Assembly: GCA_018894435.1 (NCBI GenBank)
Contig: JAHIPI010000012.1
Location: 1-42,899 of the forward strand
Source: Candidatus Omnitrophota bacterium
Lineage (GTDB): Bacteria; Omnitrophota; Gorgyraeia; JAHIPI01
Direction of reading: 5' to 3'
Length of the DNA stretch: 42,899 nt
Below the pieces are notes generated by a model that was not told the origin of the DNA, made no database searches, and saw only the letters and a program-made list of their open reading frames with translations. Shown piece by piece: positions 15,636 through 34,653 of the stretch. How positions within the stretch are numbered: the stretch's first letter is position 1; the number at the start of each line of letters is the position of its first letter. The position numbers and the translations under genes are program-made.

Positions 15636-15636
15636 G

Positions 15637-17100: not shown

Positions 17101-17101
17101 A

Positions 17102-18672: not shown

Positions 18673-19451
18673 TTTTGAATAGCATATTAGAAGAGAAGAA
18701 AAAAGCGATAGATTTAGCCAAGAAGAATGTCCCACAGAATAATCTGCTTGAGGAGATCGATAAGAAGGTAAGCCATTCCAAGCCCCATTTTTTTAGACAT
18801 TCCATCGACAAACATAATCACATGCACCTTATAGCAGAAGTCAAAAAGGCCTCGCCATCGGCCGGAGTCATACGGGAAGACTTCGATCCTTTAAAAATAG
18901 CCCTCACCTATGAAGCGTCGGGCGCCGCCGCTATTTCCGTCGTGACAGACGAAAAATTTTTTAAAGGAAACATGTCTTATCTTGTGAAGATCAAAAAGAA
19001 CGCGCGCATACCGGTACTCCGGAAAGATTTCATAATAGACGAATACCAGATATACGAGTCAATAGCAAGGGGCGCGGACGCGGCACTTCTCATAGCCGAT
19101 CTCTTATCCGAAAAAGAATTGAAGAATTTCCTCGCAATAGGCAGGGAGCATAATTTAGATTTTCTGGTGGAGGTTCACTCCGAAGAGGACGTCCAAAAGG
19201 CCATAGCGGCAGATTGCGATATAATAGGCATAAACAATAGGGACCTCCATACTTTTAAAGTTGATATCCATACCACTACACGCCTCGTCAAACTAATACC
19301 CCGCGATAAGCTGATAGTTTCCGAGAGCGGGATAAGAACGCGGGAAAATATATTATATTTTAAATCGTTAGGCGTGAATGCTGTTCTGATAGGCGAGTTT
19401 CTTATGCGAAGTGATAATATCGGCGCTACTATTAAGGAATTAATGGCTTAG
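18669..19451 (+). CDS. trpC: Indole-3-glycerol phosphate synthase
   Basis: TrpC, 260 residues, closes the indole ring to form indole-3-glycerol phosphate. This single-function barrel enzyme shows IAEVKKASPSAG (catalytic Lys region), PVLRKDFI with the catalytic Lys, LVEVHSEED, GINNRDLHTF and SESGI. The N-terminal helix typical of the family (ILEEKKKAIDLAKK) is present. It starts inside trpD and ends one base before trpF. Its product is the substrate of TrpA, encoded about 14 kb downstream. Confidence 0.96.
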   Translation: MILNSILEEKKKAIDLAKKNVPQNNLLEEIDKKVSHSKPHFFRHSIDKHNHMHLIAEVKKASPSAGVIREDFDPLKIALTYEASGAAAISVVTDEKFFKGNMSYLVKIKKNARIPVLRKDFIIDEYQIYESIARGADAALLIADLLSEKELKNFLAIGREHNLDFLVEVHSEEDVQKAIAADCDIIGINNRDLHTFKVDIHTTTRLVKLIPRDKLIVSESGIRTRENILYFKSLGVNAVLIGEFLMRSDNIGATIKELMA

Positions 19452-19452
19452 C

Positions 19453-20070
19453 ATGCTCATAAAGATCTGCGGCATAACCAATCTGGAAGATGCCCAAAAT
19501 GCGGCTTTATTCGGCGCAAATGCCATAGGTTTTGTGTTTGCCAAGAGTCCAAGGCAAGTTAGCCCCGAAAAAGCGAAAGAAATAATAGAGCGAGTAGAAA
19601 AGAATGTCATGAAAGTCGGTGTCTTTGTTGATGAAGGGCTTGAAAAATTGGAAGAGACCTCGCTCTTCTGCGGCCTGGATCTAGTTCAGCTGCATGGCAA
19701 TGAAAACCCCGATTATTGCTCAAAGATTAAAAGAGGCAAAGTCATAAAAGCGTTTCGGGTTAAAGATAAGGCGGTCCTGCCTTCCATGAACGGCTATGAT
19801 ACCGTTTTTGCTTATCTTCTTGACACGTTTTCCAGTGAGGGATATGGCGGAACCGGCAAATATTTTGATTGGCGGGTCGCAGTGAAGGTGAAGGCCCTGG
19901 GTAAGCCTGTAATACTTTCAGGAGGTATAGGTTTGGGCAATGTCGCGGATGCCATAAGAGCTGTAAAGCCTTATGGCGTAGATATATCCAGCTCTATAGA
20001 GGTAAAGCCGGGCAAAAAAGACCCTGTTCTCATGAGGCGCCTGATCGAGTCTATAAAAGCCCTTGACTAA
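19453..20070 (+). CDS. trpF: Phosphoribosylanthranilate isomerase
   Basis: TrpF, 205 residues, isomerises PRA to CdRP. The N-terminal KICGITNLEDA holds the catalytic Cys, and the catalytic Asp lies in LLDTFSSEGYGGTGK; ILSGGIG and DISSSIE close the phosphate site. It is the last gene of the first trp block. The normal next genes, trpB and trpA, are missing here and reappear at 33475. The trpF stop region (CCTTGACTAA) doubles as the -35 of the promoter for the next locus. Confidence 0.96.
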   Translation: MLIKICGITNLEDAQNAALFGANAIGFVFAKSPRQVSPEKAKEIIERVEKNVMKVGVFVDEGLEKLEETSLFCGLDLVQLHGNENPDYCSKIKRGKVIKAFRVKDKAVLPSMNGYDTVFAYLLDTFSSEGYGGTGKYFDWRVAVKVKALGKPVILSGGIGLGNVADAIRAVKPYGVDISSSIEVKPGKKDPVLMRRLIESIKALD

Positions 20071-20091
20071 TAAGCAAAGATATGCTATATT
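20063..20091 (+). promoter_or_regulatory. Promoter of the glycan locus, overlapping the trpF stop
   Basis: TTGACT (20063-20068), 17 bases, TATATT (20086-20091), with TGC just before the -10 (extended -10). Transcription would begin near 20098. It gives the carbohydrate genes, and possibly trpBA behind them, a start independent of the his-trp run. Confidence 0.65.
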
Positions 20092-20181: not shown

Positions 20182-21483
20182 ATGAAAAATTTTTATGCCA
20201 ACAAAAAGTCAGCAGCATTTTTTATATCAGCTCTTTTTATATCTCTTTTTATTACTTTTCTCGCCACCGGCTGTTGTCCCAGAGAGACAAGGCCCACTTT
20301 AAAAATAGCCATATGGGGAGGACCCAACGAAATAGATATCATAAATAAGCTTGTCAAGGAATGGCAGAAGGATCACCCTGAGGTTATTGCCAAAGTAGAA
20401 CATACGCCGGCGGGCTCGTATACGAATAAACTTCTTATAAGGATTGCCGGAGGGACGGCACCCGATGTAATGTTTGCGGAGGGCAATATCTTTGTAAACT
20501 TCTTCACTATAGACGCCTTTATGGATTTGACGCCGTTTATAGAGAAGGATGACGGATTTGAACTGTCGGACTTTTTCCCCGAAGGGCTCGAGCGCTTTAC
20601 GCGTAACGGAAAAGTGTATTGCATACCGAGAGATGTTGCTCCCTTTGCCTGCGTATATTACAATAAGCGTCTCTTTGATGAAGCGGGCCTCGCTTATCCT
20701 GATAATGATTGGGATTGGAAAGACATGCTTGAGAAAGCTCAAAAACTCACAAAAAAATCGCCGGCGGGGAAGGTAAGCCGCTACGGCTTTTACGGCTGGA
20801 CGTGGCAGAATTTTATATATTCAAACGGCGGTAGCATAGTTGACAACGTAGAAAATCCCAAAAAGTTCACCATGACGGGCGATAAAGCGGTGGACGGATT
20901 GCAATTTTACGCCGACCTTATAAATAAGTATAAAGTCTCGCCGAGCCCGGTGACTTTAGGCGACCTCGGAATGGGCGCTCAGCAGCTCTTCATGTCTCAG
21001 AAACTTGCTATGTACCAGTCCGGTTATTGGGAAAGCAATGTCTTTAGGGATATAAAGGATTTTGAATGGGATGTAGCTATGTTTCCGAAAGGGCCGTCCG
21101 GCATAAGGAGATTTGGCACGGGCGGTTCGGGCTATTGTATATTAAAGACTACAAAACATCCGGAACTGGCGTGGGAAATAGTCAAGCTTTTGACTGGAGA
21201 AAAGTCCCAGATAGCTCTTGCCGGAATAGGGCTGACGCAACCGGCTATTGAGTCTATAGCGGAAGGCCCTTATTTTGCCGAATCGCCGGCGCTGCCCAAA
21301 AATAAAGCGATGTTGAACGAAGCGATACAATATGTAGTGTATGAGCCGTTTCATCCGAAGTGGCGTGAAATAAACGAACTTTACCTTGTGCCCGAACTTG
21401 ACCTTGTGTTTAACGGTACAGAAACGGCCAAGGATGCTGCAATGAAAATAGCACCCGAAGCGAACAGGTTACTGAAAGAATAA
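20182..21483 (+). CDS. Extracellular sugar-binding lipoprotein (ABC solute-binding, family 1)
   Basis: This 433-residue protein would capture a sugar or oligosaccharide at the cell surface or in the periplasm for an ABC importer. A type II signal is clear: lysines, a hydrophobic core, and lipobox LATGC with lipidated Cys31. The mature protein has the family 1 start (LKIAIWGGPNEIDIINKLVKEWQKDHP), PDVMFAEGNIFVNFF and a later SGYWESNVF with aromatic ligand-site candidates. GAGGGG precedes ATG 20182. Unusually, no permease or ATPase gene is adjacent; the next gene is a phosphorylase. The transporter core must be elsewhere, or the protein may act as a surface sugar-binding component. Substrate cannot be read from sequence; neighbours suggest a beta-linked oligosaccharide. 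Confidence 0.88.
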   Translation: MKNFYANKKSAAFFISALFISLFITFLATGCCPRETRPTLKIAIWGGPNEIDIINKLVKEWQKDHPEVIAKVEHTPAGSYTNKLLIRIAGGTAPDVMFAEGNIFVNFFTIDAFMDLTPFIEKDDGFELSDFFPEGLERFTRNGKVYCIPRDVAPFACVYYNKRLFDEAGLAYPDNDWDWKDMLEKAQKLTKKSPAGKVSRYGFYGWTWQNFIYSNGGSIVDNVENPKKFTMTGDKAVDGLQFYADLINKYKVSPSPVTLGDLGMGAQQLFMSQKLAMYQSGYWESNVFRDIKDFEWDVAMFPKGPSGIRRFGTGGSGYCILKTTKHPELAWEIVKLLTGEKSQIALAGIGLTQPAIESIAEGPYFAESPALPKNKAMLNEAIQYVVYEPFHPKWREINELYLVPELDLVFNGTETAKDAAMKIAPEANRLLKE

Positions 21484-21536
21484 TCGACAGCCATTGCAGA
21501 TGAACCGATAGCGTAAAGAATGCACCAAAAGCCACA

Positions 21537-21616
21537 CGGCGGGACATGTTCCGCCGTACTAATATGGCAATTCTAACCTGGTTAAATTTGCCAGATTAGG
21601 AGGAACGTGTCCCGCG
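21537..21616. repeat. 80-base hairpin repeat, copy 2 (GGGACATGTTCC family)
   Basis: Same orientation and length as 12451-12530, differing at 9 of 80 positions. The outer arms GGGACATGTTCC/GGAACGTGTCCC and inner arms TGGCAATTCTAACC/GGTTAAATTTGCCA fold together. It occupies most of the 145-base gap after the sugar-binding gene, 12 bases before the GH94 start; the Shine-Dalgarno (GGAGA, 21621-21625) lies just outside it. Confidence 0.85.
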
Positions 21617-21628
21617 ACAAGGAGAAGC

Positions 21629-24052
21629 ATGAAGTACGGTAATTTCTCAAAAGACGGATTGGAATATATTATAACTGATCCCAATACTCCCCGACCGTGG
21701 ATAAACTATCTGACGAACGAAAACTATTGCTCTGTAATATCCCAATGCGGCGCGGGCTACAGTTTTTACAAAGACTGCCGCACCGACAGGATAACCAGGT
21801 GGAACCCCGAAAGTTATCATTATAACAGGCCCGGTAAGTTTATCTATATCAAAGACAATAAGACAAAAAAGTATTGGGGCGCGACTTACCAACCGGTAAT
21901 GGCCAAGCCTTCTAAATTTGAGGCAAGGCATGGCCTGGGTTATACAACGGTGAAGACGAAGTATTACGGCATTGAATCCGAAGTCACATATTTTGTGCCG
22001 ATGGAGGATGCATGCGAAATATGGCTGGTTAAGATTAAAAACGGGACCTCTAAACCAAGGGACCTGACTATTGTGCCTTATATAGAATGGCTTATAGGCG
22101 ATTACCATATGGAGCTCAGGTATCGGAATATAATGAACCTTTATGACAGGTTCTGGTTTGATAAAGAAAGTGAAATTATATTCGGCAAAAAGACGGCGAT
22201 ATGGGAATCTTTCAATATACAGCCATTTCGCTCTTTAGCGTTTTTCTCTTCAAGCCTCACTGCGCGCGGCGCCGCGACCCGGAAGGATACCTTTTTCGGG
22301 AGGTATAAGAATGAAACGGCCCCGGAGTCTATATCGGGCGATTTTGTTGATTCCGCGGCATGCTCAGGAGAAGACGGCATAGCGGCCCTTCGGCATATAT
22401 TGAGATTGAATCCGGGCGCGTCAAAGGAGTTCGTAGTAATATTGGGGCAGACGGAAAACAGAAATAAGGCCACCGAGATAGTCTCCAAGTACCGTGATCT
22501 TGTGAACGCCAAAGCGGAGTTTGAGCGGGTAAAAAATAGTTGGCGGGATAAGATAATAAATAACATTATGATTAAGACCCCGGACAGAGATTTTGACCTC
22601 ATGATCAATATATGGGTGAAGTATCAGATCTACATATGCAATATGTGGTCGCGATCACCGTCGTTTTATCATGAAGGCTCAGGCGGCCGCGGATACCGCG
22701 ATTCGTGCCAGGACGCGGAAGGTATTATGGCATTTAATCAGGAACACGCCCTTTCAAAGATAAGGACTATAGCCGGACTCATAAGACGAGATGGTTCCTC
22801 GGCGCCTGGATGGTCTGAAACACGCGGGCCCGCAAATCATAGGCCCAATAAAGACCATCCTGTCTGGCTGGTCTATACGGTTTCCGCTTATATAAAGGAA
22901 ACGGGCGATACGAATATTCTTTTTGAAAAACTGCCTTACATAAAAGACGGATGGATAGAAAAGGCGACAAAAAAGGATATCCATTGGCATAAGGGCGTGA
23001 TAAAAGACGGCGAAGGGACGCTCTTTGAACACCTGGAGAAGAACCTTAATTTTACATTTACCGATGTCGGCAAAATGGGCCTTCCATTAATAGGGCACGC
23101 AGATTGGAATGATGCCATAGACGCCGCGGGAAAACGCCTGAAAGGCGAAAGTGTCTGGCTGGCTATGGCGCTTGTCCGCTCCTACAAATTTTTAGTCGAG
23201 CTGGCAGATATAGCCGGTTATGCGGCAAAGGCGAAGGAATTCAGAAAACGGGCAAAGGTCATGACTGAACGCATCAATAACTCGTCATGGGACGGCGATT
23301 GGTACCTGAGAGGATTTACCGACTTTGATACCGTATATGGTTCTCACAGAAACAGGGAAGGAAAGATATTTGCTAACACGCAAAGCTGGGCCGTTCTTAG
23401 CGGCGTAATAGAAGGCGAGAAGCGCGATAGAATGTTCAAGGCGGTTGACAAATACCTGGACAAGAAACACGGTATCGCCCTTTTTTATCCGGCATATTCT
23501 AATTATGACCCTAAACTCGGCAGAATAACGATGTTTTCAGAGGGTACCAAAGAAAATGCGGCTGTCTTTTGCCATGCGGCTACTTTCATGGTAGTGGCTG
23601 ATTGCATGGCCGGCCGCGGTAATAAGGCGTACGAAAGCATGAAGAAGATCATGCCAAATAGCCAGAAGGATATGGACCTATACAAAACCGAGCCATATGT
23701 CTACGCAGAATACCTGATAGGGCCGGAACATCCTTACCGCTACGGTGAAGGGGCATTTACATGGACAACTGGAACCGCCGCCTGGAATTTCCTGGCAGCG
23801 ACGGAATATCTCCTCGGCGTCCATCGCGAATTTACGGGCTTAAGGATAGATCCCGCTATACCATCATCCTGGAAGAAATGTTACATTAGAAGGCACTTTA
23901 GGAAAGATATATATGAGATAACGATTAAAAATCCGAAAGGTGTCCAAAAAGGGGTTAAGCACATAAAAGTAGACGGCATTGAACAGAAGCATAATCTAGT
24001 GAGAGTAAGAAACGATAACAAGGTTCATAAAGTAGAAGTTTTGATGGGTTGA
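21629..24052 (+). CDS. GH94 family glycoside phosphorylase (cellobiose-phosphorylase-like)
   Basis: This 807-residue protein has the length and layout of GH94 enzymes, which use phosphate to cleave beta-glucosides and release sugar 1-phosphate. The N-terminal beta-sandwich shows the hallmark NTPRPWINYLTNENYCS and GYSFYKDCR. The (alpha/alpha)6 barrel has GYRDSCQDAEG and ADWND, with the general acid Asp495. There is no signal peptide, so it acts in the cytoplasm on imported sugar. Variations from the cellobiose phosphorylase pattern are ADWND (usually GDWND) and KENAAVFCHAATF (usually KENGG-F-HAN), which suggest a different acceptor or linkage. Substrate is therefore open: cellobiose, laminaribiose, sophorose-type or another beta-glucoside. 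The glucose 1-phosphate would feed a phosphohexomutase such as that at 38903. Confidence 0.9.
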   Translation: MKYGNFSKDGLEYIITDPNTPRPWINYLTNENYCSVISQCGAGYSFYKDCRTDRITRWNPESYHYNRPGKFIYIKDNKTKKYWGATYQPVMAKPSKFEARHGLGYTTVKTKYYGIESEVTYFVPMEDACEIWLVKIKNGTSKPRDLTIVPYIEWLIGDYHMELRYRNIMNLYDRFWFDKESEIIFGKKTAIWESFNIQPFRSLAFFSSSLTARGAATRKDTFFGRYKNETAPESISGDFVDSAACSGEDGIAALRHILRLNPGASKEFVVILGQTENRNKATEIVSKYRDLVNAKAEFERVKNSWRDKIINNIMIKTPDRDFDLMINIWVKYQIYICNMWSRSPSFYHEGSGGRGYRDSCQDAEGIMAFNQEHALSKIRTIAGLIRRDGSSAPGWSETRGPANHRPNKDHPVWLVYTVSAYIKETGDTNILFEKLPYIKDGWIEKATKKDIHWHKGVIKDGEGTLFEHLEKNLNFTFTDVGKMGLPLIGHADWNDAIDAAGKRLKGESVWLAMALVRSYKFLVELADIAGYAAKAKEFRKRAKVMTERINNSSWDGDWYLRGFTDFDTVYGSHRNREGKIFANTQSWAVLSGVIEGEKRDRMFKAVDKYLDKKHGIALFYPAYSNYDPKLGRITMFSEGTKENAAVFCHAATFMVVADCMAGRGNKAYESMKKIMPNSQKDMDLYKTEPYVYAEYLIGPEHPYRYGEGAFTWTTGTAAWNFLAATEYLLGVHREFTGLRIDPAIPSSWKKCYIRRHFRKDIYEITIKNPKGVQKGVKHIKVDGIEQKHNLVRVRNDNKVHKVEVLMG

Positions 24053-24057
24053 TCAAA

Positions 24058-25146
24058 ATGAAAAATAGAGAAACATTTTCGCTGTTATTTATTTTAGGCT
24101 TTTTGCTCTTGGTTTTCAGCGCAAGCTTTGTTTATTGCCAGGACGCTGGCGATTCGGCATCTTTTCAAAAGCCCCTAAAGGTTACCTGTGACGAAAGAAA
24201 TATTTACGTGGACGGCAAAATATTTTACGTAAAAGGTGTCTGTTACAGCCTGAACTACGGGCCGAAACAGTCCTTTCAGAATATTCCGCCAGATGTCTGG
24301 GAGAAGGATTTTAAGATGATGAAGGAAGCGGGGATAAATACTATACGTACTTATGAGCCGCTCCCTCCGCCGATATTGGATCTTGCGCATAGATACGGCC
24401 TAAAAGTTATAGAGAATATATGTTACCCCTCAGAGAAGACAGACTATTCCTCAAAAGCCGACTTGGAAAAATTAAAGCGGATAGCCCTGACATATGTAGA
24501 GAGAGATAAAAAGCATCCCGCAATTTTGATGTGGTCGATATGGAATGACATGCCTTTCAGATGGAGTAAAGAAGGGTCCATCCTTAATAAATATGATATG
24601 GCTACCATCCGCTCATTCCTCAAAGAATTGTACGACGCTATTAAGGATGCGGACAAAGATCATCCCGTAACAGGTTCAAATATATTGGGAAAGAGCGGCG
24701 AAGAGATAGGGTTTGATTTTCTGGATGTATTGAGTTATAACGCCTTTTTGGGGATCTCGGATTGGTTTTCCGGTAAGTTTGATCTGAAATTGGCGAAGAG
24801 CCAGATAGATAAAATAGAGAGCATAACGTCATTGAAGCACAAAAAGCCCGGTCTTATTATGGAGACGGGGTATAGCACCTATTGCAAAACAAATGATCAG
24901 GGCAGAGTAATAGACGCGCAGATTAAAGTCGCTGATTCCAAAGTAGCGGGAGTAATAATATTCCAGTGGTCGGATGGCTGGGAAAAAGCCGGTAACGCGC
25001 GGATTCAAGACGATCACATAGAAGAGCACTGGGGGATCGTGGATGCTTATCGGAACAAAAAGAGCGGTTACAGCGCCGTTTCGCGGATTTTTGGGATGAT
25101 TCCCACTAACTCCAGGGGTTATAGGGGCAGCATTGTCAGATTTTAA
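24058..25146 (+). CDS. Secreted GH-A-like TIM-barrel protein with Asn-Asp in place of Asn-Glu
   Basis: This protein has 362 residues with a signal peptide (hydrophobic core about 8-24, cleavage near FVYC-QD). The mature part is a (beta/alpha)8 barrel like the catalytic domain of GH2 and GH5: FYVKGVCYSLNYG, FKMMKEAGINTIRTYEP, HPAILMWSIWND and MMETG-type nucleophile strand LIMETGYSTY (Glu269). The acid/base position reads Asn163-Asp164 instead of Asn-Glu. The paralogue at 26958 has the same change, so it is not a sequencing slip. It may be a retaining enzyme with altered chemistry, a transglycosylase, or a binding protein. ATG 24058 is chosen; TTG 24049 overlaps the GH94 stop. It follows GH94 directly. 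Confidence 0.8.
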   Translation: MKNRETFSLLFILGFLLLVFSASFVYCQDAGDSASFQKPLKVTCDERNIYVDGKIFYVKGVCYSLNYGPKQSFQNIPPDVWEKDFKMMKEAGINTIRTYEPLPPPILDLAHRYGLKVIENICYPSEKTDYSSKADLEKLKRIALTYVERDKKHPAILMWSIWNDMPFRWSKEGSILNKYDMATIRSFLKELYDAIKDADKDHPVTGSNILGKSGEEIGFDFLDVLSYNAFLGISDWFSGKFDLKLAKSQIDKIESITSLKHKKPGLIMETGYSTYCKTNDQGRVIDAQIKVADSKVAGVIIFQWSDGWEKAGNARIQDDHIEEHWGIVDAYRNKKSGYSAVSRIFGMIPTNSRGYRGSIVRF

Positions 25147-25154
25147 ATGAGCAC

Positions 25155-25198
25155 ATAACTTATGGAGCTCAAATACAGTTTATAGCGACATAAGTTAT
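25155..25198. other. Perfect 10-base inverted repeat
   Basis: ATAACTTATG (25155-25164) and CATAAGTTAT (25189-25198) are exact reverse complements with 24 bases between. It lies 8 bases after the TIM-barrel stop. No T-run follows, so it could be an operator, an mRNA 3'-end structure or a repeat remnant. Confidence 0.5.
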
Positions 25199-25210
25199 AA
25201 GTGCGAATTC

Positions 25211-25247
25211 ATCCTGAGAACGCGATGAGCAAGAGCGTTCGAAGGAT
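25211..25247. repeat. ATCCTGAG-CGAAGGAT hairpin repeat
   Basis: ATCCT (25211-25215) pairs with AGGAT (25243-25247) and AACGC (25219-25223) with GCGTT (25235-25239). This is the general pattern of the dispersed TCCTGAG...CGAAGGA palindromes seen in many bacterial genomes, and is related in style to 4866-4897 and 38215-38243. With the preceding inverted repeat it fills the gap 25147-25281. Confidence 0.6.
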
Positions 25248-25281
25248 CTCAACAAAAAAGAATATAACAGAGGAGGGAAGC

Positions 25282-25974
25282 ATGAAAAAGAGTGCGTTGG
25301 TAGTTCTGTTTTTGGCATTGTTGACCGTTGCCTGCTCCGGAGGAGTATCGGCCGAGGACGCTCAACAGGCGATGCCGCAAGATATAACACAGGAGGTTAT
25401 AATAGCCGATTTTGAGGGCTGGCCCAATAATCTGGGCGGAGAAGTCGGTGTTTACGGGGCACTGGAGCCGAATTGGGATGATATCACTTCAGTTCCTTAT
25501 TCTTGGGTCTATGAAGCCATAACGCCCGGTTATAACCCCGAAAACGTGCACAGCGGCAAGCAGGCTTTCAGGCTGGTAAACGGCCTTGGTTCAAATCCGG
25601 AGGTTGCGTGGGGAAGCTTTGCTATGGATCTTGGCCCTACAACCGACCTTACCGTTATACCTAAGAAAGTTGAGTCGTTCGATGCTTCCGGTTTTCAATA
25701 CATCACGTTCTGGGTAAAAGGGGATAAGGGCGGAGAGAAGATGGAATTTTTGGTAAGGGATGCGCACGCCTTAAATTACATGCCGCAAGTAAAGTTAAAG
25801 CTTTCTGATGTCACAACAGAATGGCAGAAAGTGGTAATACCGCTTTCAGATATATCCGGCAAGATAGACCTTACGGCCCTTGACAATATAGGGCTTGCTT
25901 TCGGAAGGGATGTAGGAAATTTAAAAGGCGAAGTCATTTACATAGATGACGTTATGTTAACAAATACGCAGTAG
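25282..25974 (+). CDS. Exported carbohydrate-binding-like protein, copy 1
   Basis: This protein has 230 residues. The signal sequence (MKKSALVVLFLALLTVACSGG) could be lipidated at Cys18, although Thr at -3 is not ideal, or cut after VSA by signal peptidase I. The remaining roughly 195 residues form one beta-rich domain starting IIADFEGWPNNLGGEVGVYG and ending VIYIDDVMLTN, a pattern like CIA30/CBM jelly rolls (ADFE start, WGSF, FWVKGDKGGEKMEFLVRD, IDD end). No catalytic domain is fused. Function as a sugar-binding surface or periplasmic protein is inferred. ATG 25282 follows AGGAGGGA (25271-25278); the longer frame from 25201 runs through a repeat. The next gene is a close paralogue, so a tandem duplication is evident. 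Confidence 0.75.
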   Translation: MKKSALVVLFLALLTVACSGGVSAEDAQQAMPQDITQEVIIADFEGWPNNLGGEVGVYGALEPNWDDITSVPYSWVYEAITPGYNPENVHSGKQAFRLVNGLGSNPEVAWGSFAMDLGPTTDLTVIPKKVESFDASGFQYITFWVKGDKGGEKMEFLVRDAHALNYMPQVKLKLSDVTTEWQKVVIPLSDISGKIDLTALDNIGLAFGRDVGNLKGEVIYIDDVMLTNTQ

Positions 25975-25985
25975 CATAAATAGGT

Positions 25986-26082
25986 AGTCCCTCGACTTTC
26001 CGCCAGAGGCGGACCCGCCGATGAGTTGTGGCGGGCGCTCGGAACGATTTGCCAACGGGTGGAGTCTAGGGGATAAATTCGG
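25986..26082 (+). promoter_or_regulatory. Structured intergenic element between the duplicated lipoprotein genes
   Basis: It begins AGTCCCTCG and ends AGGGGATAAATTCGG, like the recA leader element 4937-5023. TCCC...GACT at the left can pair with AGTC...GGGA at the right. Inside are two hairpins: TCCGCC/GGCGGA (25999-26013) and CCCGCC/GGCGGG (26014-26035). It ends 23 bases before ATG 26106. Class unknown; it could be a leader RNA or a dispersed repeat. Confidence 0.4.
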
Positions 26083-26105
26083 CACGCACGAACTTGGAGG
26101 CTAAA

Positions 26106-26948
26106 ATGCACTTCAAAAAATATCTCAGCATATTTTTTGTTATCTTTATTTTCGCAATTTCCGGGTGTGGTCAAAATACGACTCAAAAACAATCGCTTAC
26201 GAAGGAAGAACCGGCCGAAAAAGGTATCACGCCGGTCAATGTCGTAAAGAATGAGGCCGGGTATTCCCCTGCCGCTCCGCCAATTCCTGCGGGACCCGGT
26301 GTAGGGGAACCTGTGGCCGCGAAACCTCCCGTATCTGAAGTTACCGGTGCCGAATCGGCGGAGGGAGATCTTATAATAGCCGATTTTGAGGGCTGGCCCA
26401 ATAATCTGGGCGGAGAAGTCGGTGTTTACGGCTCGCTTGAACCCGACTGGGAAAAAGTAAACCAGGGGCCCGTATCGTGGGTATATGAAGCTACATCGCT
26501 AAATTATAATCCTGAAAATGTTCATTCCGGGGCAAACTCCTTCAGGCTGGTAAACGGTACAGGCCTGAAGCCGGAATACACCTGGGGAAGTTTTTCAATG
26601 GACCTGGGCCCTACGCGGGATATTACCTCAGTTCCTAAAAAAGTAGAATCTCTTGACGCGTCGGAATATACGTATCTGGTATTCTGGGTAAAAGGAGAGA
26701 AGGGCGGAGAAAAGATGGAGCTTTTGGTAAGAGATGCCCACGCCCTCAATTATTTGCCGCAGGTTAAATATAAACTTTCCGACGCCTCCCGGGAATGGAA
26801 GAAGATAGTGGTCCCTTTAAGCGACATCAGCGGAAAAGTAGATATTGCAAAACTGGACAATATAGGCGTAGCCTTCGGTAAGGATGTGGGAAATTTAACA
26901 AATGACACGATTTATATTGATGATTTTGCATTTACCAATAACCCGTAA
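26106..26948 (+). CDS. Carbohydrate-binding-like lipoprotein, copy 2
   Basis: This 280-residue lipoprotein has lipobox ISGC (Cys21). A Pro/Ala-rich, probably flexible linker (about 25-90, AAPPIPAGPGVGEP) leads to a domain of about 190 residues that is closely similar along its length to copy 1 (IIADFEGWPNNLGGEVGVYG, YNPENVHSG, LLVRDAHALNYLPQVK, VDIAKLDNIG). Copy 2 differs in the long linker, which would hold the domain away from the membrane. A 61-base tract (26371-26431) is identical in DNA to copy 1. ATG 26106 with GGAGG at 26096-26100 is preferred to TTG 26094. It is 9 bases from the next gene. Ligand unknown; a role in holding the polymer processed by its neighbours is inferred. Confidence 0.78.
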   Translation: MHFKKYLSIFFVIFIFAISGCGQNTTQKQSLTKEEPAEKGITPVNVVKNEAGYSPAAPPIPAGPGVGEPVAAKPPVSEVTGAESAEGDLIIADFEGWPNNLGGEVGVYGSLEPDWEKVNQGPVSWVYEATSLNYNPENVHSGANSFRLVNGTGLKPEYTWGSFSMDLGPTRDITSVPKKVESLDASEYTYLVFWVKGEKGGEKMELLVRDAHALNYLPQVKYKLSDASREWKKIVVPLSDISGKVDIAKLDNIGVAFGKDVGNLTNDTIYIDDFAFTNNP

Positions 26949-26957
26949 GAGGATGAT

Positions 26958-29267
26958 ATGCGTAAGCCAAATAACGACGAAAGAAAAAAAAGAAAAAAAT
27001 TGTTTATGAATTTTATTAAAGGATTCCTGGCCGCGCTTTTGGCCCTTGTATTTATAATCCTTTTATTTTTTCTTTTATTGCCAAAAAAACCCGACATCAT
27101 AAAAGGCGTGACATACGACCTCAAGTACCCCCGCATCAGCCATTATTCGCAGATATCGGTCGATGTATTTGAAAAGGACTTCAAGATGATGAAGCGGGCC
27201 GGCGTAAACACTATAAGATTATACGGGGTGCCGCCTGAATTCGTCCTCGACCTGGCAGATAAATACAAGATAAAAGTCATTGAGACGATAGTCTTCCCGG
27301 GAGATTGGACAGATTTTAATTCTCCGTATCAACTTCAGGCGCTTAAAAGAGAAGCCGTGCGCAATATAGCCAGGGATATAAACAGGGAGTGTATCTACGC
27401 CTGGAGCATCTGGAATGATGCGCCCTGGACATATGGTTCCGGAAAGGGTGACGTTATAAGAGCTTACGGAAAAGAACGTGTAGAAAAATTTTTGAAAGAG
27501 TTATACGAATGCGTGAAGAAGCATGATCCTCTCAGGCCGGTTACTGCCGCCACGTTAACGCTTAATGATGAGGCAAAAAGATTGGGCACAGATTTTCTTG
27601 ATATCCTGGGTTACAATATTTATCTCGGTGTAACTGATTGGAAGGACGGAAGTTATAGCTCCGAGGTATCAAAAGAGATGGTCGATGGCCTCGTAGCGCT
27701 TTCGCGTGAATACAAAAAGCCCGTGCTTATAACGGAAACCGGATACAGCACGTACTGGAAGGCCGATGAGCAGCGGCATGTAGTAGGCGATCAGATAGAG
27801 AAAGTAGATAAAAAATTGGCCGGTCTTATAATATTTCAATGGGCGGACGATTGGTCCAAAGCAGGCGATGTAAAAAAGCAGGCCGATGATGTAGAAGAGC
27901 ATTGGGGCATAGTGGACGGCGAAAGGAAGCCGAAGGGCGGTTATTATGCCGTGGAAAAGTCGTTTAATAACAGCGCCTACGATACGGTAATGTACCGAAT
28001 AGCGGATTATTTCAGGGGAGGCTATTTTGCGGCAAAAAAGCACGCTTTGAAGAAAAGATGGAAAGAAAATATAATAGTAGACAGGGAGATAGACGACCTG
28101 GAAAACCAGATGAATACGAGAGCGTCTACGGAAGAAATACCATTGATCCTTGACAAGCTTTCGGCAAGGTTCTTTGAAAAGAAAGGATTTGACCAATTCA
28201 GTTCTTTTCTAAGAGAATACAGCGCCTCTCATAAAGAATCGAAATACAAGGCCCTCTTGGGTTACTATATCGCTCTTTCAAATTGGAACAAACTGGAGTA
28301 TCTGGCAAAAAACAATATGTGGGATACCTATTACGCCGAAAAGACAAGATCCATGAAGAATATAATAAAGCAGCTTGAATCCGCCCGGAAAGATGCGGAA
28401 GGCAAAGATGGGTATCTTGATATTTTATATCTAGAGTGGGTTATACAGGATGATCTTCTTGAGGGAAGGGAAAATATGGCACTTAAGCGCCTGGAAGATG
28501 AGATAAAACGATATGCCGCGCAATATAAGGATGTAACGCCTCTCATGGCTTATTCCAAGCTTTTGCTTGATAAGGGCCAGCGCCAGGTTTCCGAGAGATT
28601 ATTGCGGGAATACGCCGGTAATGTCGGCACCTTTATGCCTAAAGAGGAAGCGGTATTATTGTTAAAAGATAGAGCTGAAAACGCTCTTAATGGTGGTGAT
28701 GCAGGCAGGGCAAAGATATTGTATGACGCCTATATTACTATTCTTTCGAAAAATGCCACGGAAGAAGATGCCTGCTTCGCGATGCTGGATGTGGCGTCTC
28801 TTTACAGGCGCAAGGGCATGTTTGACGAATCCGTCGCCGTATGTAATAGGTTATTGTCGGAATTTCCTAATAGCGAGCTTGCCGACGACGCCAGTTATGC
28901 CATAGGTGCGGCTTACAAGGAGCAAAAATCCTACAGTAAGGCCGTAAAGGCATTTCGCGATTTTATAGCGACATACCCTGAAAGCGCGCTTACCAAGAGC
29001 GCCATAAAAGAAGTCATAAGTATTTTTACGGTATATGGAAAAGGGACGAGGGCCGAAAAGACAGTGACATTTATGAAAGAGATTGTAGCATTATATCCCG
29101 AAAGAGATTTTACGGTAATGGCGCGTTTTGAACTTGCTTCTTCGCTTGAGTCATTAGGAAAAAGGGACGAGGCTATCGCAGAATATGAATTTATCGTTAA
29201 GAATTTCGCCGGTTCCGAATACGCCGGCTATGCAAAGAAGAGTATGGAGTCCTTACAGAGAAGATAA
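26958..29267 (+). CDS. Membrane-anchored GH-A-like TIM barrel with TPR-rich C-terminus
   Basis: This protein has 769 residues. A Lys/Arg-rich start and one membrane helix (about 20-41) anchor it, with the rest outside. Residues about 45-340 are a (beta/alpha)8 barrel paralogous to the gene at 24058: FKMMKRAGVNTIRLYG, AWSIWNDAPW with Asn153-Asp154 in the acid/base position, and ITETGYSTYW with the nucleophile-type Glu260. From about 390 to the end it is helical with tetratricopeptide-like repeats, clearest at 615-765 (AVCNRLLSEFPNSELADDA; AVKAFRDFIATYPES; AIAEYEFIVKNF). This barrel-plus-TPR build suggests a scaffold that may bring envelope proteins together around a glycan. Whether it hydrolyses anything is doubtful given Asp for Glu. 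It follows copy 2 by 9 bases. Confidence 0.78.
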   Translation: MRKPNNDERKKRKKLFMNFIKGFLAALLALVFIILLFFLLLPKKPDIIKGVTYDLKYPRISHYSQISVDVFEKDFKMMKRAGVNTIRLYGVPPEFVLDLADKYKIKVIETIVFPGDWTDFNSPYQLQALKREAVRNIARDINRECIYAWSIWNDAPWTYGSGKGDVIRAYGKERVEKFLKELYECVKKHDPLRPVTAATLTLNDEAKRLGTDFLDILGYNIYLGVTDWKDGSYSSEVSKEMVDGLVALSREYKKPVLITETGYSTYWKADEQRHVVGDQIEKVDKKLAGLIIFQWADDWSKAGDVKKQADDVEEHWGIVDGERKPKGGYYAVEKSFNNSAYDTVMYRIADYFRGGYFAAKKHALKKRWKENIIVDREIDDLENQMNTRASTEEIPLILDKLSARFFEKKGFDQFSSFLREYSASHKESKYKALLGYYIALSNWNKLEYLAKNNMWDTYYAEKTRSMKNIIKQLESARKDAEGKDGYLDILYLEWVIQDDLLEGRENMALKRLEDEIKRYAAQYKDVTPLMAYSKLLLDKGQRQVSERLLREYAGNVGTFMPKEEAVLLLKDRAENALNGGDAGRAKILYDAYITILSKNATEEDACFAMLDVASLYRRKGMFDESVAVCNRLLSEFPNSELADDASYAIGAAYKEQKSYSKAVKAFRDFIATYPESALTKSAIKEVISIFTVYGKGTRAEKTVTFMKEIVALYPERDFTVMARFELASSLESLGKRDEAIAEYEFIVKNFAGSEYAGYAKKSMESLQRR

Positions 29268-29289
29268 AATAGCTTTAAGTCAAAGGAAA

Positions 29290-31092
29290 ATGATGAAAAT
29301 TCTGAAAATACTTTTGGCGATGGTTTTAATTACCTTCGGCATAATCATGCTGATACCCGTTTCGCAAGATTTTTTATCTAGCGTTGGGCACAAAGAGTGG
29401 TCCGATACGGAAAAGGCATATCAGTGGCTTCGGGCCGGCCAAAGGACTAACAGGGTATTCTTTCTTTTCCACACCGGGCTCATACCCAGTCTGGAAAAAT
29501 GGGAAGATTGCTTTGTGTATGATGAGGCATTGGCTGCCATGGCCTTTACGCATAAGGGAGATTACGAAAGGGCAAGAGCACTATTCGATTTTTTTGACAG
29601 CGTGCGCAAGCGTCACATAGAAAAAAACGGCGGATTTTTGGGTTTTACAGATGTTTATAAGCGAAACGGCAAAGAGACCGAGACGCGCGCGGCAGGCCCC
29701 AACGCCTGGGTTCTTATGGCGCTCAACTATTATTACGCGAAAACAGGCGACGAAACCTACCTTCCGCTTGCAAAAGATATCGCAGAATGGCTAGTGTCCC
29801 TTCAGTCAATAGAAGGCGGCATAATAGGCGGCTATTACGGCAACGGCAAACCAATGACATGGATTTCAGTCGAACACAATTTTGATTGCTATTCCGCTTT
29901 CAGGGACCTGGGGATATTAACGAATGACGAAAGGTATCTTAAGTTAGCGAAAGAAGTGAAAAAATGGCTTATCGATGATACTTGGGATAAGAAAGCCGGC
30001 AGATTTTTCCTGGGGCGCCGCAACAAAAATTTTGCGACTGACCTTTCGAGCTGGGCAGTACTCAGTTTAGGCAAAGATTGGGCCCCGAGCCTTGCGTTTG
30101 CGGAAGAAAAGAGTAGAAATACCCAGCTTTATAAGATAAAGAATGTCGAAGTGGACGGTTTTGATTTTGGCTCCACCTATAAGACATCACCTTTCCCGGA
30201 CAAGGATGCGGTGTGGTTTGAAGGTACCGCGCACATGGTACTTGCGTATGAGGTGGCGGGCATGAAAGAAAAGAGGGATTATTTCATGGCCGAGCTCGAC
30301 AAATGCCTTACCGCGAGCCCCGTATTTCCGTATACGGCAGGCCTTCCTTATGCCAGCAATGAGGGAACACCTGTTTACGACAGCTGGCTCATGCAGGATA
30401 AACCGCTATGCATTTCAAGTACGGCATGGTATCTATTCGCAAAAAATAGCTTTAATCCCTTCTCGGCATCGAGCGATATGGATGCTTCAAACAGAAGGAT
30501 CGGCGAGTTAAAGTACGAACCGTCTTATCAGTTTGGACCTATTGTCGATGATTTTGAATATACCGACATAAAGTTTCACACCGCTTATCCGGATGACCTT
30601 ATGCAGCTAAACAAGTCCGAGATAGCGCTTGATTGGACCGATGAGCTTGCTTTTGACGGCAATCATTCTATGAAGATAGTGTTTACGCCGAATAAAGACG
30701 CTAAGACCGCAAGCGCTACTGTCAGGCGCCCTTTTCTATACCCGCAGGACTGGAGCTCGTATGACAAAATAAATGTGGAAGTCTATTCCAACGGCACCAG
30801 AGGCCGCGGCAATAATACAGCGAATATCAGCGCGAGAGACGGCGAAGGCGAGACCTATGATTCCGGGCCCATTTTCCTAAATAGGAGCGGGTGGGCAAAG
30901 TATACCTTCAATTTACCGAAGGACTTTTCCAGAAACCCTTTTGACGGCGTCACATACGGAAATAATATATTCGACCTTTCGAAGATAATAGAAATATCTT
31001 TTAATATAAAGTCCAAACATCCTGTAGAGAGCTGTACGATTTACGTAGACAGGATAGAGCTGGAAGGGGCACTGACATATGAAAAGGAATAA
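29290..31092 (+). CDS. Membrane-anchored helical-toroid protein with C-terminal sugar-binding-like domain
   Basis: I cannot assign a family with confidence. The 600-residue protein has an N-terminal anchor or signal (about 4-24). About residues 35-440 are helix-hairpin repeats with small and aromatic residues, like (alpha/alpha) barrels of glycoside hydrolases and polysaccharide lyases: FVYDEALAAMAF, GGFLGFTDVY, GPNAWVLMALNYYYAKTGDETY, WISVEHNFDCYSAF and VWFEGTAHMVLAYE. Asp and Glu in these segments are candidate catalytic residues. Residues about 445-597 are a beta-rich domain (IVDDFEYTD start, IYVDRIELEG end) like the two lipoproteins upstream. ATG 29290 is chosen because AAAGGA lies just before it; the longer frame is inside the previous gene. 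It overlaps GH35 by 14 bases. Confidence 0.7.
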   Translation: MMKILKILLAMVLITFGIIMLIPVSQDFLSSVGHKEWSDTEKAYQWLRAGQRTNRVFFLFHTGLIPSLEKWEDCFVYDEALAAMAFTHKGDYERARALFDFFDSVRKRHIEKNGGFLGFTDVYKRNGKETETRAAGPNAWVLMALNYYYAKTGDETYLPLAKDIAEWLVSLQSIEGGIIGGYYGNGKPMTWISVEHNFDCYSAFRDLGILTNDERYLKLAKEVKKWLIDDTWDKKAGRFFLGRRNKNFATDLSSWAVLSLGKDWAPSLAFAEEKSRNTQLYKIKNVEVDGFDFGSTYKTSPFPDKDAVWFEGTAHMVLAYEVAGMKEKRDYFMAELDKCLTASPVFPYTAGLPYASNEGTPVYDSWLMQDKPLCISSTAWYLFAKNSFNPFSASSDMDASNRRIGELKYEPSYQFGPIVDDFEYTDIKFHTAYPDDLMQLNKSEIALDWTDELAFDGNHSMKIVFTPNKDAKTASATVRRPFLYPQDWSSYDKINVEVYSNGTRGRGNNTANISARDGEGETYDSGPIFLNRSGWAKYTFNLPKDFSRNPFDGVTYGNNIFDLSKIIEISFNIKSKHPVESCTIYVDRIELEGALTYEKE

Positions 31093-33466
31093 AATAGAGA
31101 TAAAAGATACAAAATTTTTGCTTAACGGAGAACCGTTCTTCGTCTATTCGGGAGAGATACATTACTTTAGGATCCCGAAGGATAAATGGGTGGACAGGCT
31201 CAGGAAGGCGAAAGAAGCGGGGCTCAACACAATAAGTACTTATATCCCATGGAGCTGGCATGAAACAAAGGAAAATGAGTTCGATTTTACCGGAAAGACA
31301 AAACCCGAAAAGGATATAGCCTCCTTTATAAAAATGGTTAACAATGCCGGTCTATTCCTTACGGTCAGGATAGGCCCGGTATCTAATTCTGAGATAAAAG
31401 GCGAAGGCATACCCGTATGGCTTCTCGAGAATTATCAGGATGTGCGGGCAAAGAATCAGAAAGGCGGTAACGCGCTTCACGAAGCGATGGTCTCCTATAT
31501 GAATCCGGTCTTTCAGAACCATTTATCCAAATGGTATGCCAGGATATGCCCTATGGTAGTTAAGAATATGGTACAAAAGGGCGGACCTATCATAATGGTG
31601 CAGCTTGATAACGAAATAGGTATGATGAACTGGGTTATGAACTCACCCGATTATAATGAGGCAACGACCCGCATGTACCAAAAATATCTCGAGGAATATT
31701 ACAAGGGTAACATAGCGGCGGTTAATGAAAAGTACTATACAAACCATACGAGGTTTGACGAAATACCGCAGCCCAAGGGCGATGTTGACGAAGAGGGCGT
31801 GATAAGATGCTGGGACTGGGTCCATTTTTATACGCACTTTTACGCCAAGTATTACCAGTCGCTTGTGGAAAGGGCCAAAGATCAAAAGATCAATCTTCCC
31901 TTTGTAGCCAATATCCCGATGTTTTGGGATTACAACATCTGCGCTAGGGGAAATTTCGGGTTGATGACGATACTTCAATACAGAGATTTTATAAAATTTA
32001 CGCCCAATGTAATATTCGGAGGAGCTTATCAGATGCGGAACCTCAATTTTGATAATTTCCACGACGCCATACTTATGACAGAGGGCATCAATATGATAAG
32101 CGATAATGTCGCGCCGAAGATATGCGTGGAGACGCAGGTGGGGGGAATGAACGATAAGCCCCGGATATACCCTCCAGATATAAATTTGCTTTTGAGATAC
32201 GCTATGGGCCATGGCCTTAACGGTTTGAATTTCTACATGTTCTGCGGCGGCACCAATGATATAGATTTTGGTTTCAGGGGGACATATCACGAATGGCAGG
32301 CACCCATTGACAGCCATGGCAAGAAGACGCCGCGAATAAAGCCGCTGGAAGACGTAGGGGAAACCGTAAAGACGTTCGGTTCTCAGATAGCCGATACGAA
32401 AAAAGAGTATGATTTCGCCATAGGCCTTTACGCGCCGTATTATGAAACAAGCTATCTAAAGGGTTCTGTCTCGGATAACATGTTATTCATGAGGGATAAA
32501 TTCTTCTTTGATGGCATCGCACGGCTCTTAACGGTCAACGGCTATAATTATAAGCTCGTGGACATTGAAAGAGCGAAAGAAAAGGATTTGAACGAAATCC
32601 CTGCCATGTGGGTCTTCGCGCTGGATTATATGGACCAGAAGACACAGTCAAAGCTGGCGGAATACGTGAAGCGAGGCGGCACTGTTATAATAAGCCCTAC
32701 CGTTCCGACGAAGGACATGGGCCTTTTGAGGGATGAGACGTTCCTGCGCGAGATTGGGGTCAGTATAAGCGAAACAGTCAAGGATAACCTCGTATTTGTG
32801 GGCGGCAGGGATTATTACGTGGACAGCGAAATCAAGATATTTGATTCCAAGAAAAGAAGGATAGTGGCGAGGACGCGCGATAAAAAGCCGTGCGGCATAC
32901 TAAAAAAAGTAAAGAAGGGCAAAGTCCTGTTGCTGGGTTTCGGCGTTACGCACCTCTTGGATTACTATATGGGCCTTGTGTCGCATTTTATGGAGATCCT
33001 TAACATTGAGCCGCGCATAAAATTGACACCGAAAGATGTTCATGCCGTGGTAAGGTCTAACAGGAAATATGCCTTCCTTTTTCTTTGCAACTTCAACGAC
33101 GATCCTCGGGAGGTAACGGTAAACCTTAGGATCCCGGGCTTAAATAAAGCCGTTACAATTCCTCAGGACGCAAAGATACTTCTTCCTAATAGAAGCGCCT
33201 ATATATTGCCGCTTAATGTCCCGGTTTCAAATAGGGCACGAATACGGTATTCAACGGCGGAAGTGCTTCGCGTCTTCAGCACAGACAAAGACTTAAAGCT
33301 GGCGTTTCACGGAGGAGCAGGTTCTTTATGCGAGATGCTTCTCGAAATAAGAAGGCCTCACAGCGTAAGCCTGGACGGGAAAGAGATACCCTTTAAACAC
33401 AAAGACGGACTTTTGAAGTTATCCTTTGAACTAACCGGAAAGACGCAGAATTTAACGATCATATAG
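31079..33466 (+). CDS. GH35-type beta-galactosidase-like glycosidase
   Basis: This 795-residue protein without a signal peptide is probably cytoplasmic. The N-terminal barrel has the GH35 opening ([25 protein letters not shown]), [13 protein letters not shown], and QLDNEIG with the acid/base Glu179. The nucleophile is probably Glu351 in ICVETQVGG. The binding-loop segment reads [18 protein letters not shown] where typical members have GPY--AEW--GG-P-WL, so substrate preference may differ from simple beta-galactosides. After about residue 430 comes a glutamine-amidotransferase-like fold as in GH42 and some GH35 enzymes ([23 protein letters not shown]), then beta domains. The start lies inside the upstream gene (GGAAGGGG upstream), and the stop is 8 bases before trpB. 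Confidence 0.85.
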
Positions 33467-33474
33467 AGGTAAAG

Positions 33475-34653
33475 ATGTTACCGGACAAGAAAGGGCATTT
33501 TAAAGATTTTGGCGGTAAATTTGTTCCTGAGACGCTTATGGCAGCTCTTTGTGAGCTGGAGTCCGCTTATTTGAAAGCCAAAAAGAGCCTGGCATTCAAA
33601 AAAGAACTCAATTACTATCTTACAAATTACGCCGGCAGGCCTACGCCTCTTTATTTTGCGGGTAATCTTACAAAAAAAATCGGCGGGGCCAAGATATATC
33701 TAAAGAGAGAAGACCTTCTGCATACCGGCGCTCATAAGATAAATAATACGTTAGGCCAGATAATACTTGCTAAAAAGATGGGTAAGCGCCGGATAATAGC
33801 CGAAACCGGAGCCGGCCAGCACGGCGTCGCGACTGCTACCGTGAGTGCTCTGTTTGGGCTCGAATGCTCTGTTTATATGGGAGAAGAAGATATAGAACGG
33901 CAGGCGCTCAATGTATTCAGGATGAAATTAATGGGAGCAGAAGTCATACCGGTCGGGAGCGGCTCAAAGACACTTAAAGATGCGATAAACGAAGCGCTTA
34001 GGGATTGGGTGACCAATATAAGGACTACGCATTATATAATCGGCTCCGTAGTAGGGCCGCATCCTTATCCGATGATAGTAAGAGATTTTCAGGTGGTAAT
34101 AGGAAAAGAAGCGCGAAATCAGATACTTAAAGCCGAAGGGAAGCTGCCGCGCGTACTTATTGCCTGCGTAGGCGGCGGAAGCAATTCTATAGGCCTCTTC
34201 CATCCTTTTTATAAAGACAAGGTGGAATTTATAGGGGTAGAAGCGGGGGGGCTCGGCCTTTCATCCGGCAAGCACGCCGCATCTCTTTTATTAGGCAAAA
34301 CCGGAGTATTGCATGGCAGTAAAAGCCTGATACTTCAGGATGAGAACGGCCAGATCCTTACAACGCACTCGGTAAGCGCGGGACTGGATTATTCGGGAGT
34401 CGGGCCGGAACACTCGTTTTATAAAATAACAGGCCGCGCCAGGTATGCGGCGGTTTCGGACAAAGAGGCGCTCCTGGGTTTCAAAATGCTTTCCGAGATA
34501 GAAGGTATAATCCCGGCACTGGAACCGGCTCACGCCGTATATTACGCCTCAAAAGTCGCGCGCAAACTGAGAAAAAGCGATATCATAATCATCTGCCTTT
34601 CAGGACGGGGTGATAAGGATATAGATATTGTAAGAAAATACCTGCATTTATGA
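33475..34653 (+). CDS. trpB: Tryptophan synthase beta chain
   Basis: TrpB, 392 residues, is the PLP-dependent subunit that joins indole to serine. The PLP lysine is Lys88 in [24 protein letters not shown], the cofactor phosphate loop [10 protein letters not shown], and [13 protein letters not shown] near the active site are all present. This is the TrpB1 type that pairs with TrpA, not the stand-alone TrpB2. AGAGGT overlaps the GH35 stop and precedes ATG 33475. The gene thus sits at the tail of the glycan locus, 13.4 kb from trpF, and overlaps trpA by ATGA. Confidence 0.97.

What the first reader, a model, noticed from the sequence alone, without database searches (positions are those of the whole stretch)
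20182..33466. Candidate undescribed envelope glycan-processing system
The locus joins an orphan solute-binding lipoprotein, a cytoplasmic GH94 phosphorylase, a secreted barrel, two beta-domain lipoproteins, an anchored barrel-TPR protein, an anchored toroid protein with the same kind of beta domain, and a GH35 enzyme. There is no SusC/SusD pair and no adjacent permease. The parts suggest a surface assembly that holds and trims a beta-glycan, scaffolded by TPRs, with phosphorolysis inside. I know of no standard locus with this composition.
Basis: inference. Interest (0 to 1): 0.7.

Follow-up and report, generated by a model that had tools for sequence, protein, structure and literature searches.

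The report
Omnitrophota beta-glucan scavenging gene block
Eight genes in an uncultivated Omnitrophota bacterium, set inside its tryptophan operon, most likely trim a beta-linked glucan in the cell envelope, import the pieces and split them with phosphate; the layout is unusual, and close relatives of its parts sit on receptors that look controlled by the signal molecule c-di-GMP.

Summary
The eight genes and their order are real. The block lies exactly between trpF and trpB. It is kept gene for gene, at the same trp site and with a matching promoter, in a second genus, and nearly complete in a third genome. More distant relatives, some in bins labelled as other phyla, keep toroid, barrel and beta-domain genes as neighbours beside LacI regulators. 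So the genes belong together. The 'orphan' reading fails at genome level: there is one carbohydrate-type solute-binding protein (this one), one MalF/MalG pair (between cysS and tmk, also in the second genus) and one MalK-type ATPase beside a ROK kinase. Best explanation: an ABC-import and phosphorolysis system for a beta-glucan, with glycan processing in the periplasm. GH35 is closest to a beta-1,2-glucosyltransferase; GH94 specificity cannot be assigned. The two GH-A barrels carry a conserved Glu-to-Asp change at the predicted acid/base. Most Omnitrophota relatives of the toroid read PilZ, membrane helix, coiled coil, toroid, and one lineage has a barrel there: predicted transmembrane c-di-GMP receptors with periplasmic glycan-enzyme outputs, on which I found no paper in the library searched. 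The window's copies lack PilZ. A surface-displayed assembly is not supported.

The parts
15538..20070 (+). trpE, trpG, trpD, trpC, trpF: upstream half of the tryptophan operon (context, not part of the system)
   Evidence: translations; orthologues in the same order in G137
20063..20091 (+). predicted sigma-70 promoter between trpF and the block, TTGACT-17-TATATT; TTGACT-17-TATAAT at the same place in G137
   Evidence: the scan alone is at chance level, the evidence is the matching site in another genus
20182..21483 (+). CUT1-type solute-binding lipoprotein, the only carbohydrate-type SBP of the genome (the other hit is PstS)
21629..24052 (+). GH94 glycoside phosphorylase, no signal peptide; catalytic DWND motif kept; acceptor specificity not assignable
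24058..25146 (+). secreted GH-A barrel (GH2_C-like), acid/base position Asp (WND), predicted nucleophile Glu kept
25282..25974 (+). lipoprotein with CBM30/CBM11-like domain
26106..26948 (+). second, paralogous lipoprotein with CBM30/CBM11-like domain
26958..29267 (+). N-terminally anchored GH-A barrel (WND type) with C-terminal TPRs
29293..31092 (+). N-terminally anchored (alpha/alpha)6 toroid with C-terminal CBM11-like domain; invariant E194, N196, D250
31079..33466 (+). GH35 without signal peptide; nearest solved structure IaSGT beta-1,2-glucosyltransferase (7vkw)
33475..35450 (+). trpB and trpA: downstream half of the tryptophan operon (context)
38903..40324 (+). phosphoglucomutase/phosphomannomutase, could take glucose 1-phosphate into glycolysis (context; link inferred)

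Best explanation
The block encodes a beta-glucan scavenging system of the ABC-import and phosphorolysis kind. In the periplasm, two GH-A barrels (one secreted, one membrane-anchored with TPRs), an anchored (alpha/alpha)6 toroid and two CBM11/30-like lipoproteins bind and process a beta-linked glucan. The solute-binding lipoprotein delivers oligosaccharides to a MalF/MalG permease and MalK-type ATPase encoded elsewhere in the genome. In the cytoplasm GH94 splits the sugar with phosphate and GH35 trims or transfers beta-glucosyl units; the products enter glycolysis through phosphoglucomutase and a ROK sugar kinase. Shown by sequence: the families, the conserved block, the single matching transporter parts, the predicted anchors and signal peptides. 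Inferred: the substrate (beta-1,2-glucan or sophoro-oligosaccharide is the leading guess), the catalytic activity of the barrels and toroid, and the flow between the parts.
For: Same eight genes, same order, same trp site in G137, 56-79% identity; seven of eight at the same trpB-trpA junction in L082; matching promoter in two genera. One CUT1 SBP, one MalFG pair, one MalK-type ATPase next to a ROK kinase in the genome; the MalFG pair is between cysS and tmk in both genera. An SBP-GH94-GH35 core recurs in families f5 and f13, with CBM-like lipoproteins in most cases and the SBP 52-55% identical. A related, common Omnitrophota cluster has SBP-MalF-MalG next to barrel-lipoprotein-barrel genes and ROK and LacI regulators. 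GH35 is closest to IaSGT, with E176, E343, Asn175, Glu102 and Tyr378 matched. Full-length GH35 and WND barrel occur in the same genomes: 6 shared of 7 and 8 among 237 (family-level p 5e-4).
Against: No endo-glucanase of known family was identified in the block and no GH144 (PF10091) in the genome. GH94 cannot be tied to beta-1,2 linkages; its core scores 76-87 bits against cellobionate, chitobiose, cyclic-beta-1,2-glucan and cellobiose enzymes alike. IaSGT Arg349 is not conserved. The barrels may not be active hydrolases. The pairing of SBP and distant permease is by elimination, in a 95% complete assembly.
Confidence: 0.6

Rival explanations
1. Envelope glycan turnover: the barrels, toroid and lipoproteins remodel a glycan that the cell itself makes, and the importer and GH94 recycle the trimmed pieces.
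For: Membrane anchors and TPRs; relatives of both toroid and barrel are fused to PilZ and a membrane helix, which suits signal-controlled envelope remodelling rather than feeding; GH94-containing open frames of about 2100-2200 aa, the size class of glucan synthases with a GH94 domain, exist in two relatives.
Against: No glycosyltransferase in the block; LacI and ROK regulators and MalFG in related clusters point to uptake of food sugars; the window's proteins have no PilZ.
Confidence: 0.22
2. A synthase-dependent exopolysaccharide export system (Pga, Alg or Pel type) in which TPR proteins and glycosidases process a polymer during secretion.
For: TPR plus glycosidase plus lipoprotein resembles PgaA/PgaB and AlgK parts (established knowledge); relatives add PilZ proteins and long predicted outer-membrane barrel proteins.
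Against: No synthase, no outer-membrane porin in the block; presence of an SBP, GH94 and GH35, which serve import and breakdown.
Confidence: 0.08
3. Sub-hypothesis on one step: the barrels with Asp at the acid/base site are glycan-binding or glycosyl-transferring proteins, not hydrolases, so the envelope part captures glycan and the toroid alone cuts. It can hold together with the best explanation.
For: Asp in all 19 loci scored that carry the window type, always with the second Glu kept; Glu in the 65 other barrels scored (the search that fetched the loci used WND patterns, so counts are biased).
Against: Asp can act as an acid/base, and the rest of the pocket is conserved.
Confidence: 0.3
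4. The eight genes are unrelated neighbours that happen to sit in the trp operon.
For: None beyond the mixed families.
Against: Conserved order in three genomes, recurring subsets in bins labelled as other phyla, shared phylogenetic profile.
Confidence: 0.02

Closest known systems
Ignavibacterium album beta-1,2-glucan gene cluster (IaSGT GH35 IALB_1185, GH94 IALB_1177, Sopn-binding protein IALB_1187, GH144; PMC8861115)
   Same: GH35 of the IaSGT kind, a GH94 and an ABC-type binding protein in one cluster; cytosolic GH35
   Different: No GH144, GH3 or TonB-dependent transporter in the window; WND barrels, toroid-CBM11 and barrel-TPR are not in the description I read of that cluster; GH94 type unresolved
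Listeria innocua Lin1839-Lin1841 (1,2-beta-oligoglucan phosphorylase, GH3, Sopn-binding SBP; described in PMC12369401)
   Same: ABC binding protein plus GH94 phosphorylase for oligosaccharides
   Different: Gram-positive; GH3 in place of GH35; no envelope barrels, toroid or CBM lipoproteins mentioned in the passages read
Cellodextrin ABC import with cellobiose phosphorylase (3qde, cellobiose phosphorylase, as nearest full-length GH94)
   Same: CUT1 importer logic and GH94 phosphorolysis
   Different: The window GH94 lacks the acceptor-side insertion of CBP after DWND and no cellulase was identified in the block
Alg44-type PilZ membrane proteins of alginate synthesis (for the relatives, not the window; from established knowledge)
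   Same: Cytoplasmic PilZ, one membrane helix, periplasmic domain
   Different: Periplasmic part is a toroid or GH-A barrel; the window copies have no PilZ

Membership tests
GH94 glycoside phosphorylases | Supersandwich plus (alpha/alpha)6 catalytic domain with catalytic Asp in DWND | tested here: met
   PF06165 and PF17167 above cut-off; ADWNDAID aligned with ADWND of CBP
GH94 cellobiose phosphorylase subgroup | Acceptor-site segment after the catalytic Asp as in CBP | tested here: not met
   CBP insertion absent; core segment scores CBAP 87, ChBP 82, CGS 77, CBP 77 bits
GH94 1,2-beta-oligoglucan phosphorylase / cyclic glucan synthase subgroup | Specific subfamily placement | tested here: inconclusive
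   No clear preference; no activity data
GH35 | GH-A barrel with acid/base and nucleophile Glu | tested here: met
   PF01301 E 6e-50; both Glu aligned with E176 and E343 of IaSGT
GH35 IaSGT-type beta-1,2-glucosyltransferase | Asn before the acid/base (not Asp as in glucosaminidases), Glu102, Tyr378, Arg349 and activity on Sopn | tested here: inconclusive
   Asn, Glu102 and Tyr378 match; Arg349 does not (also not conserved in many homologues, PMC8861115); activity not testable
CUT1 ABC importer | SBP, two MalF/MalG permeases, MalK-type ATPase | tested here: met
   One of each in the genome at three loci; physical pairing not tested
SusC/SusD polysaccharide utilisation locus | SusC/SusD pair | tested here: not met
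   None in the block by Pfam
GH-A (clan A) glycosidase barrels | Two catalytic Glu, acid/base after Asn at strand 4 and nucleophile at strand 7 | tested here: not met
   Acid/base position is Asp in the window type; the second Glu is kept; the fold match itself is clear
CBM11/CBM30 | Pfam score above cut-off, beta jelly roll, glucan binding | tested here: inconclusive
   First lipoprotein above CBM30 cut-off (30.4 vs 27), second just below (25.8); toroid domain matches CBM11 fold 6r31; binding not tested
Synthase-dependent exopolysaccharide system | Membrane glycosyltransferase synthase and outer-membrane porin in the cluster | tested here: not met
   Neither is in the block

The most novel reading that the evidence does not exclude
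The window block is the PilZ-less branch of a family of glycan systems common in Omnitrophota in which cytoplasmic PilZ domains, through a membrane helix and coiled coil, let c-di-GMP switch periplasmic glycan enzymes (toroid or barrel) on or off, coupling a second messenger directly to periplasmic glycan processing and import.
Probability: 0.3. Interest if true: 0.72.

Novelty: new variant of a known kind. Interest (0 to 1): 0.5.

Why it matters
Omnitrophota are widespread and hardly studied; the paper read here infers their sugar uptake only in general terms (PMC8542988). The block gives a concrete, testable uptake route with three protein types of unknown biochemistry: GH-A barrels with Asp at the acid/base, a toroid with a CBM11-like domain, and a barrel-TPR. 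The relatives with PilZ on the other side of the membrane suggest that c-di-GMP may act directly on periplasmic glycan enzymes, which could be tested with one purified protein.

Tried and rejected
First AlphaFold run of the toroid with two sequences failed (pLDDT 41); the 51-sequence run worked. Rfam found no RNA element in the window. Promoter and terminator scan counts are at chance; only the trpF-SBP site repeated in G137 was kept. The G000 C44 permeases, considered as a sugar pair, are PstC/PstA; C74 and C11 are oligopeptide-type. A toroid-barrel fusion suspected in L046-L048 turned out to be PilZ-helix-coiled coil-barrel. No paper found for PDB 9fz9, the nearest single-domain relative of the barrels. 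I considered a chance cluster, a SusCD locus, exopolysaccharide export and cyclic glucan synthesis; the last has no PF10091 support in the genome.

Full report
WHAT IS THERE. The window (G000:C12) is one whole contig of a 1.57 Mb, 96-contig assembly, 95% complete. Its nearest relative with the same block, G137, matches a public record titled Candidatus Omnitrophota bacterium isolate BS750m-G14 (contig length 68403 in both), so the window is taken to be Omnitrophota. The eight ORFs of the finding are present, on one strand, with short gaps or overlaps except for gaps of roughly 110-160 bases before the SBP, after it and before each lipoprotein. They lie exactly between trpF and trpB, behind a his operon and trpE-G-D-C.

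CONSERVATION. In G137, another genus of the same family, all eight genes occur in the same order and at the same trp site. Identities to the window are GH94 74-79%, GH35 73%, toroid 72%, barrel A 68%, SBP 67%, the lipoproteins 56-66% and barrel-TPR 59%, against 61-77% for the trp genes. A third genome (L082) keeps seven of the eight, without barrel A, with trpB-trpA following. The trpF-SBP gap holds TTGACT-17-TATATT in the window and TTGACT-17-TATAAT in G137, so the block probably has its own promoter.

MORE DISTANT RELATIVES. Loci L072 and L079 (bins labelled 'bacterium' and 'Spirochaetes') carry a full toroid with beta domain, a window-type barrel and CBM-like proteins side by side with a LacI regulator and a predicted outer-membrane protein. 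An SBP-GH94-GH35 core recurs in families f5 and f13; CBM-like lipoproteins lie between or beside them in L180, L184 and L185 but not in L182. The GH94 there is only 34-35% identical while the SBP is 52-55% identical. Full-length GH35 and WND barrel share 6 genomes (7 and 8 carriers among 237); because the genomes are related, the family-level figure (p 5e-4) is the fair one. A broader cluster in Omnitrophota has SBP-MalF-MalG, a TPR barrel, one or two beta-domain proteins, an anchored barrel, a TPR protein, and ROK and LacI regulators, sometimes with GH94, GH116 and a PilZ-toroid. Its beta-domain family is homologous to the window's lipoproteins (hhalign probability 98.2, E 5.5e-14).

THE MISSING TRANSPORTER. 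A search for permease domains in the genome gave PstC/PstA, oligopeptide-type permeases and one MalF/MalG pair, which lies between cysS and tmk with no SBP. The same pair sits at the same place in G137. The only CUT1 SBP is the window's; the other hit is PstS. One MalK-type ATPase exists, next to a ROK-family kinase that is likely a glucokinase. A complete importer can therefore be assembled by elimination.

THE ENZYMES. GH35: best match is the beta-1,2-glucosyltransferase IaSGT (367 bits; the next, glucosaminidase-type enzymes, about 250). The two catalytic Glu, Asn before the acid/base, Glu102 and Tyr378 match; Arg349 does not. GH94: overall nearest to cellobiose phosphorylase (479 bits) but without its insertion after DWND; over the catalytic core it scores almost equally against cellobionate, chitobiose, cyclic-beta-1,2-glucan and cellobiose enzymes (that 4zle is cellobionate phosphorylase is from memory). 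Barrels: nearest single-domain structure is 9fz9; the residue after the conserved Asn is Asp in all window-type sequences, the second Glu is invariant. Toroid: (alpha/alpha)6 fold like MmpH, cellobiose 2-epimerases and GH76; C-terminal domain like CBM11; invariant E194, N196 and D250, near-invariant E310 and D291, so probably an enzyme. A related barrel is fused to CBM11, a PF10091 (GH144-type) domain and dockerin in L091, which fits a beta-1,2-glucan link but is one case and of the other barrel type.

PILZ RELATIVES. About 40 of the 51 aligned toroids have about 125 N-terminal residues before a single predicted helix at about 130-180, then a coiled coil and the toroid. PilZ was found by Pfam in the three of these that were scanned; one is below the family cut-off (19.4 vs 22.5 bits), so the PilZ call for the whole group rests on alignment. 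Three proteins of family f5 have the same front end joined to a WND barrel. The window, G137 and L082 toroids start with the helix only, and the window's genome has no PilZ in an ORF longer than 300 aa. No paper on this was found in the library searched.

HOW IT LIKELY WORKS. Periplasmic binding and cutting by barrels, toroid and CBM lipoproteins; capture by the SBP; MalFGK import; GH94 and GH35 in the cytoplasm; then phosphoglucomutase (window 38903-40324) and the ROK kinase. Families, order, anchors and the single transporter set are shown from sequence; substrate, activities and flow are inferred. Topology rests on hydrophobicity and lipobox reading, not experiment.

LIMITS. Gene starts are chosen by eye. 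Relatives are metagenome bins whose labels may be wrong. Barrel counts come from a search that used WND patterns. The absence of other SBPs or permeases holds for a 95% complete assembly.

VERDICT. A real, conserved locus, undescribed as far as I could find, of a known general kind, with unusual parts and a stronger lead in its PilZ relatives than in the window itself.

Noticed in passing
A6 alignment; e.g. L028:10013-11941, L033:8717-10891, L042:7619-9646: Widespread Omnitrophota proteins with PilZ-like front end, one membrane helix, coiled coil and periplasmic toroid: candidate transmembrane c-di-GMP receptors with a glycan-enzyme output.
   Followed up: partly
L046:8274-10379, L047:10714-12813, L048:10388-12487: PilZ, membrane helix, coiled coil and WND-type GH-A barrel in one protein, with other genes around than in the window.
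   Followed up: partly
L091:1982-5380: Archaeal-labelled bin with one 1132-aa protein joining a GH-A barrel, CBM11, a Glycoamylase (PF10091, GH144-type) toroid, CBM11 and dockerin.
   Followed up: partly
L043:8618-10647: In another class of the phylum a distant toroid-like gene (24-25% identity) also lies directly after trpF; may be coincidence.
   Followed up: no
G107:C2:86618, G100:C6:27940, G075:C5:50285: Toroid-like matches inside open frames of 70450, 57099 and 33383 aa in Omnitrophota genomes.
   Followed up: no
L005:4446-14177 (G000:C69): 3243-aa RHS-repeat protein of the window's own genome that also contains a toroid-like stretch, a CBM30-like domain and dockerin.
   Followed up: no
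L050:9914-12187 (G000:C4): A second GH2_C barrel protein of the own genome, with CBM9 and canonical NE motif, beside chorismate-binding (TrpE/PabB-like) and class-IV aminotransferase-like genes.
   Followed up: no
G000:C90:5565-6773 and G137:C16:55369-56577: A second GH94 gene (about 777 aa) outside the block in both genera; neighbours not examined.
   Followed up: no
L031:10772-13981, L033:10958-14182: About 1070-aa proteins in the related clusters with only a trace of GH94 similarity; possibly a new phosphorylase-like family.
   Followed up: no
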